The notes under the pieces: generated by a model
Databases searched by the model: none
Told to the model about the DNA's origin: nothing
The model's input: only the letters and a program-made list of their open reading frames with translations
Source of the DNA: Pararhizobium sp. YC-54
GTDB lineage: Bacteria; Pseudomonadota; Alphaproteobacteria; Rhizobiales; Rhizobiaceae
Assembly (NCBI RefSeq): GCF_025847205.1
Contig: NZ_JAOYTH010000002.1
Location: forward strand, 454,952-518,951
DNA length: 64,000 nt
Reading direction: 5' to 3'
Translations under genes and position numbers: made by a program
Shown here: one piece after another, positions 14,736-39,448 of the stretch
Numbering within the stretch: the stretch's first letter is position 1
Layout: every line of letters begins with the position of its first letter

Positions 14736-14765
14736 ATACCAAGTCTCGATGATAGAGACTGGTAT
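14736..14765. repeat. Solo hairpin made of the 22.5 kb element's terminal repeat
   Basis: ATACCAAGTCTC (14736-14747), a short spacer, then GAGACTGGTAT. The left arm and spacer (ATACCAAGTCTCGATGATAG) are the same as the outermost 20 bases of the terminal inverted repeats of the element at 22484-22747. Here the two arms are directly joined with no interior. Confidence 0.75.
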
Positions 14766-21956: not shown

Positions 21957-22484
21957 ATGTCCGTCCATATCGCCCTGCTTCGCGCCGTCAATGTCGGTGG
22001 GACCGGCAAACTTGCCATGAGCGACCTGAAAGCGCTGTGCGAGAAAGCCGGTTTCGAAGACGTGAAAACCTATATCCAGAGCGGCAATGTTTTGTTTCGG
22101 TCGCAACTCTCCGCCGAAAAGGCCGGCAAGGCTCTGGATGACGCGCTTGCCAAGCTGATGGGCAAGGCGCCGGGCGTGATGGTCCGCAGCCGCAAGCAAC
22201 TGGAAACCATCGCTGAAAACAATCCCTTTGCGGATGCCAAGCCGAACTACCTGATGGTCAATTTCCTGCCGGAGGAAGCGCCTGCCGATGCGCTGGACAA
22301 ACTCGTCGCGCCGGATGGCGAAGAGGTGCATGCCGCAGGCCACGAAATCTACGTGCATTATCCCAACGGCTCCGGCCGCTCGAAACTGAAGCTGCCGGCG
22401 CTGAAACAGGCCACATCGCGCAATCTCAACACGGTGCGGAAGCTGGCGGAGCTTGCGGCGGAGATGGAAGACGCAGGCGACTGA
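21957..22484 (+). CDS. DUF1697 domain protein
   Basis: A 175-residue protein of the DUF1697 family, whose members start with a short ALLRAVNVGG block, here HIALLRAVNVGGTGKLAMSDLK. Other family features present are AGFEDVKTYIQSGNVLF and, near the end, SKLKLPALKQATSRNLNTVRKLAEL. The function is unknown in the family. GGGAGAGG precedes the ATG. The stop codon's last A is also the first base of the palindromic element at 22484-22747. Confidence 0.9.
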   Translation: MSVHIALLRAVNVGGTGKLAMSDLKALCEKAGFEDVKTYIQSGNVLFRSQLSAEKAGKALDDALAKLMGKAPGVMVRSRKQLETIAENNPFADAKPNYLMVNFLPEEAPADALDKLVAPDGEEVHAAGHEIYVHYPNGSGRSKLKLPALKQATSRNLNTVRKLAELAAEMEDAGD

Positions 22485-22747
22485 TACCAAGTCTCGATGA
22501 TAGAGGCCTATAGGACAGGCTCGATCGGATTTTCTGGCTAGGAGAGGTCCGCGGAGCGATGCCCATGCATCGGTCAAGGACCGCGACGCCGCCAGAAAAG
22601 CCGAGAAGCCTGCCGAAGGTGGCCCATGGCTGGTCTCTGGCGTTGTTGCGCCGCTTGCCCGATGCGGCAGCATCGCGCTGCGCACCGCGCCTAGCCAGAG
22701 ATCAGCCATGGGCCATCCTATAGGTCTCTATCATCGAGACTTGGTAT
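22484..22747. repeat. Structured palindromic intergenic element A
   Basis: About 264 bp with 32-base terminal inverted repeats (22484-22515 and 22716-22747, one mismatch; they begin ATACCAAGTCTCGATGATAG). Nested inside are a 14 bp stem (22525-22538 with 22591-22604), a core hairpin (22546-22582) and a 20-base arm pair (22621-22640 with 22695-22714). The core reads GGTCC, GCGGAG, CGATGC/GCATCG, GTCAA, GGACC. Element B at 39176-39448 shares this layout and the core loop but not the stem sequences. Confidence 0.85.
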
Positions 22748-22906
22748 AAATTGTCCCGGGCGTCGGGCAACGCAGTGGCATGTTTGTGGATAACGCAGTG
22801 GTCCGTTTGCAGATTGAGACAATCCTAACGAATTGTTTAATCCTTACAACATTAGAGACCAATAACATTCCCCTTTAATTGCCAGTCGTTCTTTGGGGGA
22901 ATAGCT

Positions 22907-39175: not shown

Positions 39176-39448
39176 CTAGAGCCTCGTACAATAAATGAGG
39201 CGCATTCTGTTGTCTCAAATCGGCCGATCCACCAGAAGGACGGCGCGGAGCGATGCCGCCCCATCGGTCAAGCCGTCCGACGCCGTGGGCGGCCGATTTC
39301 AGACAACCCCGAGGGCCGGATGCTTTTTTGTCAGGAAACGGGCTTTTGTCTCGAACGTACCTGCTTGGTATGCCCTTCGACAAAAGCCCGTTTCCTGACA
39401 AAAAATCCTTCCGGCAGAATGCACCTCATTTATCGTACGAGGCTCTAG
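39176..39448. repeat. Structured palindromic intergenic element B
   Basis: About 273 bp with 34-base terminal inverted repeats (39176-39209 and 39415-39448, two mismatches; left begins CTAGAGCCTCGTACAATAAA). Nested inside are a 17-base stem (39210-39226 with 39290-39306), a core hairpin (39238-39278) and a perfect 27-base arm pair (39324-39350 with 39379-39405). The core is GGACGGC, GCGGAG, CGATG/CATCG, GTCAA, GCCGTCC. Layout and core loop match element A at 22484-22747, with all stem sequences different. Confidence 0.85.

What the first reader, a model, noticed from the sequence alone, without database searches (positions are those of the whole stretch)
22484..22747. Structured intergenic element A, the first of two with a conserved core
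The element is a nested set of inverted repeats: 32-base ends, a 14-base stem, a core hairpin and a 20-base arm pair. Element B at 39176-39448 has the same order of parts, yet every stem has a different sequence. Only the core is shared: GCGGAG, stem CGATG/CATCG, GTCAA. The core's outer stem is GGTCC/GGACC here and GGACGGC/GCCGTCC in B, so pairing is kept while bases change. Covariation of this kind suggests selection on a folded RNA or single-stranded DNA, as for a non-coding RNA or a REP/MITE-like element. It begins at the stop codon of the DUF1697 gene.
Basis: partly seen in the sequence, partly recalled or inferred. Interest (0 to 1): 0.75.

Follow-up and report, generated by a model that had tools for sequence, protein, structure and literature searches.

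The report
Jumping DNA with conserved hairpin core
The two structured stretches are copies of small jumping DNA elements that carry no genes, and their shared folded core recurs in similar elements of very different bacteria, including the long-known Correia element, so the hairpin itself, rather than the ends, seems to be the conserved working part.

Summary
Confirmed. Elements A (22484-22747) and B (39176-39448) are nested inverted repeats sharing only a core hairpin. Both are copies of MITE-like mobile elements: the genome holds 14 elements with the core (18 core hits), one A and one B copy are absent at the same place in related genomes, and TACCA-ended elements have a 3-bp TNA target duplication (18 of 26 identical, shuffled mean 6.9). 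In A a second, inverted core lies on the other strand. Covariance models find the core in 59 of 109 genera of the family, 80 of 243 genera of another class, 7 of 8 motif-picked Clostridia loci and 6 of 6 Correia-type loci. The core starts 49 or 50 nt from its own 5' end in 32 of 45 elements. Core pairs tolerate G.T far more than A.C (63 to 2, high-scoring rows); terminal arms do not (106 to 107): the core is kept as a folded single strand. Best reading: nonautonomous transposons moved in trans, with a strand-specific hairpin in each end. ssDNA or RNA is open. My searches found no report of this shared core.

The parts
22484..22747 (+). Element A: MITE-like element, TACCA-ended type (TACC from 22485, GGTA to 22746)
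   Evidence: two further near-identical copies with the exact core
22484..22515 (+). A left terminal inverted repeat; 22482-22484 (TGA, stop codon of the DUF1697 gene) is the left TNA flank
22716..22747 (-). A right terminal inverted repeat; 22747-22749 (TAA) is the right TNA flank (differs from the left flank in this copy)
22534..22595 (+). A core hairpin domain on the + strand (62 nt; two conserved asymmetric loops)
   Evidence: R3 60.6 bits E 6.7e-15; R1 and R2
22551..22577 (+). centre shared exactly with B: GCGGAG-CGATG-loop-CATCG-GTCAA
22637..22698 (-). A second core hairpin, on the opposite strand (inside the 22620-22715 arm pair)
   Evidence: R3 65.2 bits E 2.8e-16; R2 75.6 bits
39176..39448 (+). 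Element B: MITE-like element, TA|GAGC-ended type, with CTAG at both ends (TA at 39177-39178 and 39446-39447)
   Evidence: three further copies
39228..39289 (+). B core hairpin domain
   Evidence: R3 55.0 bits E 3.1e-13
39324..39405 (.). B second arm pair (27 nt, perfect), no core detected in it
   Evidence: no match there
14736..14765 (+). 30-base solo palindrome made of the ends of an A-type element
   Evidence: locus L069

Best explanation
A and B are nonautonomous DNA transposons (MITE-like) of one very large structural superfamily. Each element end is a unit: about 49 nt of terminal inverted repeat plus spacer, then a 62-nt hairpin core that is read on that strand; full elements carry two such units in inverted order, others have one recognisable core. 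Shown: many copies, absence at orthologous sites, TNA duplication for the TACCA type, near-fixed distance from core to end, a core conserved across unrelated ends and distant bacteria, strand-specific folding of the core but not of the terminal arms. Inferred: the ends are cut by a DDE transposase supplied in trans (target patterns and terminal bases point to IS5-type transposases), and the core, folded in single-stranded DNA (or in a transcript), is needed for movement or for survival of the element, whichever transposase is used. The arms can then change with their transposase while the core stays.
For: Copies: 14 elements in this genome (18 core hits). Empty sites: the place of B copy L006 is uninterrupted in 25 of 25 other genomes of the genus, 16 of which I aligned; the place of A copy L005 is uninterrupted in the 6 relatives whose match crosses the joint, of 18 others with any match (in L270 the empty site has one TAA, the filled one TAA on both sides). 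TNA flanks identical in 18 of 26 distinct TACCA elements, shuffled mean 6.9, largest of 500 shuffles 14. Core 49 or 50 nt from its 5' end in 32 of 45 elements, partner core at 48-50 in 23 of 29; 72 of 180 elements have cores on both strands. Covariation: 95.7% of cells paired against 74.3 shuffled, 91.2 against 63.4. G.T:A.C in the core 115:15; 63:2 and 40:3 in high-scoring rows, 43:13 and 66:13 in the weaker and the motif-picked rows; 71:5 with the helix placed by anchors, 19:4 in the reduced set, p 0.0026; terminal arms 106:107 in 137 elements; outer core stem 114:87. Correia core: R3, built without these loci, matches 6 of 6, E 1.7e-5 to 3.9e-4. IS1031-subgroup IS elements insert at TNA with 3-bp repeats (PMC12016507, passage); of 30 DUF4096 transposon loci in this genus an inverted repeat was found for 17, 12 of them with YTAR-type ends, L310 and (left end) L315 with TTAGAGCCTG.
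Against: Likeness to resident IS ends is limited to about 8 terminal bases, for the B type; no IS with TACCA ends was looked for by sequence beyond the TIR searches. In element A itself the TNA flanks differ (TGA, TAA). The B empty sites nearest in sequence lack one T for a clean TA duplication (L294 has it). Counts on model-made alignments lean towards the structure and towards G.U, and the models share sources with some genomes surveyed. The outer core stem shows only a mild lean (114:87). ssDNA and RNA are not separated by any test here.
Confidence: 0.62

Rival explanations
1. The core is a functional RNA: the element is transcribed (from its own or neighbouring promoters) and the folded core acts in the transcript, for example by binding a host protein or RNase III, giving the element a benefit or protecting its host mRNA.
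For: Strand-specific folding of the core; Correia elements in mRNA are bound and in cases cut by RNase III (PMC2649163, passages; PMC10969869, passages), though there the terminal repeats are named as the substrate. Cores on both strands would serve either direction of transcription.
Against: In one-core elements 29 neighbouring reading frames run into the element on the core strand and 26 on the other; in two-core elements 25 against 14, a lean that is not decisive. No Rfam family. The near-fixed 49-50 nt distance to the end is more natural for a transposon end.
Confidence: 0.25
2. Arm complementarity is kept by templated correction between the two arms of a quasi-palindrome (strand switching in replication), not by selection; the core is merely old sequence.
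For: Terminal arms show no strand preference (106:107); one family has a core turned into a perfect hairpin (L044); short palindromic remnants exist.
Against: The core keeps asymmetric, unpaired loops in distant bacteria and shows G.T over A.C, which arm-to-arm copying would erase.
Confidence: 0.08
3. REP/BIME-type elements moved by a Y1 (RAYT) transposase that recognises the hairpin.
For: Hairpin read on one strand, two inverted copies per unit, mostly between genes (inference).
Against: Terminal inverted repeats plus a 3-bp TNA duplication are not expected of Y1 transposition (recalled). Presence of a RAYT gene and of the GTAG tag was not tested.
Confidence: 0.04

Closest known systems
Correia repeat enclosed element (CREE, nemis) of Neisseria
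   Same: Short, gene-free, TIR-bounded, TA target, mobile by an undetermined mechanism (PMC2649163, passages); same core with both asymmetric loops, matched by R3 in 6 of 6 loci; intermediate family L147 in G882
   Different: TIR sequence unrelated; only one core in the six loci as seen; R1 found none, R2 gave only E 0.11
MITEs and IS elements of the IS5 family (IS427, IS1031 groups)
   Same: Target TNA with 3-bp repeat (IS1031 group, PMC12016507 passage) or TA in a YTAR context; some terminal bases
   Different: DUF4096 transposons here lack the core (0 of 30 loci); no autonomous parent with the same long ends found. That DUF4096 marks the IS427 group is recalled
Rhizobial intergenic repeats (RIME, Sm repeats, A, B, C motifs)
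   Same: Intergenic, structured, dozens of copies in rhizobia (PMC2573895, passages)
REP/RAYT systems and integron attC sites (recalled)
   Same: Single-strand hairpins recognised on one strand through unpaired bases
   Different: No TIR/TSD there; neither was searched for by a model here

Membership tests
MITE (nonautonomous DNA transposon) | short, no transposase gene | tested here: met
   about 264 and 271 bp; ORFs listed across them are mechanical frames, judged chance, not tested further
MITE (nonautonomous DNA transposon) | terminal inverted repeats | tested here: met
   137 distinct elements with arms
MITE (nonautonomous DNA transposon) | multi-copy and insertion polymorphism | tested here: met
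MITE (nonautonomous DNA transposon) | target site duplication | tested here: met
   TNA type 18 of 26, not in element A itself; for the TA type the count is built into the end pattern and the one empty site is off by one base
MITE (nonautonomous DNA transposon) | autonomous partner with same ends | tested here: inconclusive
   only outermost bases shared with DUF4096 transposons, B type
Correia element | core hairpin | tested here: met
   R3 matches CREE loci and both window elements
Correia element | its TIR sequence | tested here: not met
   ATACCAAG or TAGAGC ends against ATAGTGGATTAA
Correia element | RNase III binding, promoters | not testable with these tools
   needs experiments
Known Rfam RNA family | score above gathering cut-off | tested here: not met
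   0 matches in the window; for A the three matches up to E 1 are far below their cut-offs
REP/RAYT | no TIR and TSD | tested here: not met
   TIR and TSD present
REP/RAYT | tag motif and Y1 transposase | not tested
   no search made
Rhizobial RIME / Sm / ABC repeats | sequence identity | not tested
   no sequence found in the papers seen

The most novel reading that the evidence does not exclude
A pan-bacterial class of mobile element is defined by a strand-specific folded hairpin at a fixed distance from each end rather than by its terminal repeats. The hairpin is a portable device, working in single-stranded DNA or RNA with a factor common to most bacteria, that lets gene-free elements borrow unrelated transposases (TNA and TA classes) and so spread through Pseudomonadota, Bacillota and probably beyond; Correia elements are its neisserial branch.
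Probability: 0.42. Interest if true: 0.92.

Novelty: new variant of a known kind. Interest (0 to 1): 0.8.

Why it matters
How Correia elements move has not been determined (stated in PMC2649163, passage). A core conserved in distant bacteria next to unrelated ends says that something besides the transposase-binding ends is under selection, gives a model (R3) that finds such elements in about three in ten sampled genomes of one class (99 of 321), and makes the question testable in harmless laboratory bacteria. It might also tie separately named intergenic repeats into one family.

Tried and rejected
Chance or artefact: rejected (slid-structure controls; no core in 89.5 kb of IS loci). Host ncRNA tied to neighbouring genes: not supported. 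Known Rfam family: none. Autonomous element: none seen by eye in the listed pairs; DUF4096 loci lack the core. Paper searches: 'Correia element' (15 of 48 papers listed), Correia core letters (two unrelated papers), rhizobial repeats, 'Correia-like' and similar (one unrelated paper), MITE with conserved structure (15 of 30 listed), IS5 groups: titles and abstract starts only, except passages of PMC10969869, PMC2573895, PMC2649163 and PMC12016507. None reports a core shared beyond Neisseria; the library holds open-licence papers only. Model R1 missed Correia and R2 was weak; only R3 was significant.

In one search, 88 elements whose ends fitted neither end pattern were set aside. In one search only cores that fit the anchors (154 distinct) were counted. 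In one search each terminal-arm pair was counted once. The D type of Rhizobium leguminosarum/etli is only weakly matched (R3: L019 28.1 bits, L015 and L016 20.3 bits, L014, L017, L018 none at E 0.1; R2: L014 28.8 bits).

Full report
What is there. Their exact common core occurs twice in the window, with none expected in shuffles, and seven times in the genome, none for the reversed pattern. These seven are close copies of two families: three of A, four of B. RNA folding of A, a B copy and two relatives (L009, L014) gives one plan: a terminal stem, a first arm with the core, and a second arm. The gene that ends at 22484 is DUF1697.

A second core. A covariance model of the core (R1; six sequences) matched 18 of 26 genomes of the genus, the own genome included, and often gave pairs of matches about 103 bases apart on opposite strands. 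In A the second arm is such an inverted core (22637-22698, minus strand). So the full plan is end, core, reversed core, end. Of 180 elements collected, 72 have a detected core on both strands. Some copies lack the second arm (L008; L040) or consist only of the ends (about 31 bases).

Range. R1 matched 92 of 247 genomes and 59 of 109 genera of the family. R2, built on 95 cores, matched 33 of 289 genomes of the class and 48 of 398 of the phylum, 24 of these 48 in other classes. R3, built on 91 cores from 76 loci, none from this genus, matched both window elements (55.0 to 65.2 bits), 18 places in 14 elements of this genome and 99 of 321 genomes, 80 of 243 genera, of the class of G882. The number of candidates scored per genome is capped, so copy numbers are lower bounds and some genomes may be missed. 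Of eight loci labelled Clostridia, Clostridiales, Ruminococcus, Ruminococcaceae or Oscillospiraceae, seven score 39 to 61 bits with R3 and L182 does not match; one Pseudonocardia scores 43.7 and one Planctomycetota MAG 58.6, while the two Streptomyces loci do not match significantly. All nine matching loci have flanking inverted repeats, and four Clostridia loci have the same three bases on both sides, TAA or TCA, at TACT...AGTA ends (L188, L197, L212, L221); L226 has TAA and TCA. These loci were picked by the motif, so only the pairing outside the pattern and the ends are independent evidence, and labels of metagenome bins may be wrong.

Link to the Correia element. I recalled that the neisserial Correia core looks alike and fetched six loci by a recalled pattern. 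R1 missed them. R2 ranked three of them first with E 0.11 to 0.22. R3, built without them, matched all six with E 1.7e-5 to 3.9e-4, and one further place in L101 (E 3.6e-4), before a gap to 15.3 bits. Unnamed sources of R3 could not be checked for kinship with Neisseria. A family in G882 (L147, left out of R3) is intermediate in sequence and scores 42.4 bits. E-values from these short calibrations are rough.

Mobility. The place of B copy L006 is uninterrupted in 25 of 25 other genomes of the genus, 16 of which I aligned; the place of A copy L005 is uninterrupted in the six relatives whose match crosses the joint. For the A copy the filled site has TAA on both sides and the empty site in L270 one TAA. 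Over 26 distinct TACCA-ended elements the three flanking bases agree in 18, against a shuffled mean of 6.9 and a largest value of 14 in 500 shuffles; they mostly follow TNA, the target of the IS1031 group of the IS5 family (PMC12016507, passage). In element A itself they differ (TGA, TAA). The B type has TA on both sides in a YTAR-like context (30 elements, ends defined by pattern); its empty sites nearest in sequence lack one T for a clean duplication. Of 30 loci with a DUF4096 gene in the genus, an inverted repeat was found around 17; 12 of these have YTAR-type ends, and L310 and the left end of L315 read TTAGAGCCTG. That these belong to the IS427 group is recalled. None of the 30 loci carries the core.

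What is selected. Pairing in the core covaries, with the reserve that the larger alignments were fitted to the structure. The more telling test asks whether mismatches are G.T or A.C: a G.T on one strand is an A.C on the other, so only folding of one particular strand makes a difference. Core pairs: 115 G.T and 15 A.C in 120 rows; 63 and 2, and 40 and 3, in the high-scoring rows of two alignments, 43 and 13 in the weaker rows, 66 and 13 in the motif-picked set, 38 and 12, 18 and 2, 11 and 0 in opposite-strand partners; 71 and 5 in 154 cores when the middle helix was placed by anchors, 19 and 4 after redundancy reduction (p 0.0026). Terminal arms of 137 elements from the same collection: 106 and 107. 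Outer part of the core stem: 114 and 87. So each core is maintained as a fold of its own strand, while the terminal arms behave as double-stranded ends. All cores counted were found by models that favour G.U, which may inflate the difference; G.T is also the milder mismatch in ssDNA (recalled), so this does not tell DNA from RNA.

Architecture. In 45 elements with recognised ends the core starts 49 or 50 bases from its own 5' end in 32; the partner core lies at 48 to 50 bases in 23 of 29 (88 elements with other ends set aside). A near-fixed distance between unrelated ends and a conserved hairpin suggests that both are parts of one device at each end.

Direction of transcription. In one-core elements, 29 neighbouring reading frames run into the element on the core strand and 26 on the other; in two-core elements 25 and 14 (reading frames found mechanically). 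This gives little support to a role tied to neighbouring transcripts, but does not exclude an RNA with its own promoter.

Conclusion. Ordinary part: A and B are MITE-like mobile elements rather than host RNA genes. Unusual part: a strand-specific hairpin core shared by elements with different ends, different target types and very different hosts, Correia elements included. I did not find this in print with the searches named (open-licence library only; passages of one MITE review). Steps inferred, not shown: the transposase type, the need for the core in movement, and whether the fold is DNA or RNA.

Noticed in passing
window 14736-14765 (locus L069) and 7 further places in the genome (L050, L051, L053, L054, L055, L056, L058): Solo palindromes of about 31 bases made of A-type element ends only; probably deletion remnants.
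   Followed up: partly
L044 (G207), core region: A B-type family whose asymmetric core loop has become a perfect hairpin (TTGTG facing CACAA), as if one arm had been copied from the other.
   Followed up: no
L014-L019 (Rhizobium leguminosarum and etli plasmids): B matches 65 plasmid records, most at 60-80% identity; in these copies the first core is too diverged for the models and only the second arm is weakly matched in some.
   Followed up: partly
L163 (Planctomycetota MAG), L185 (Pseudonocardia kujensis): Single motif-picked loci outside Pseudomonadota and Bacillota with strong core matches; could be transfer, contamination or real range.
   Followed up: partly
L168, L191 (Halomonas), L211 (Pseudomonas): Elements beginning CTAGGGTCTGTTGACGTTTCAT or similar, resembling the ends of some DUF4096 transposons (CTAGGTCCTGTTGACAAAGT); a place to look for the mobilising transposase.
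   Followed up: no
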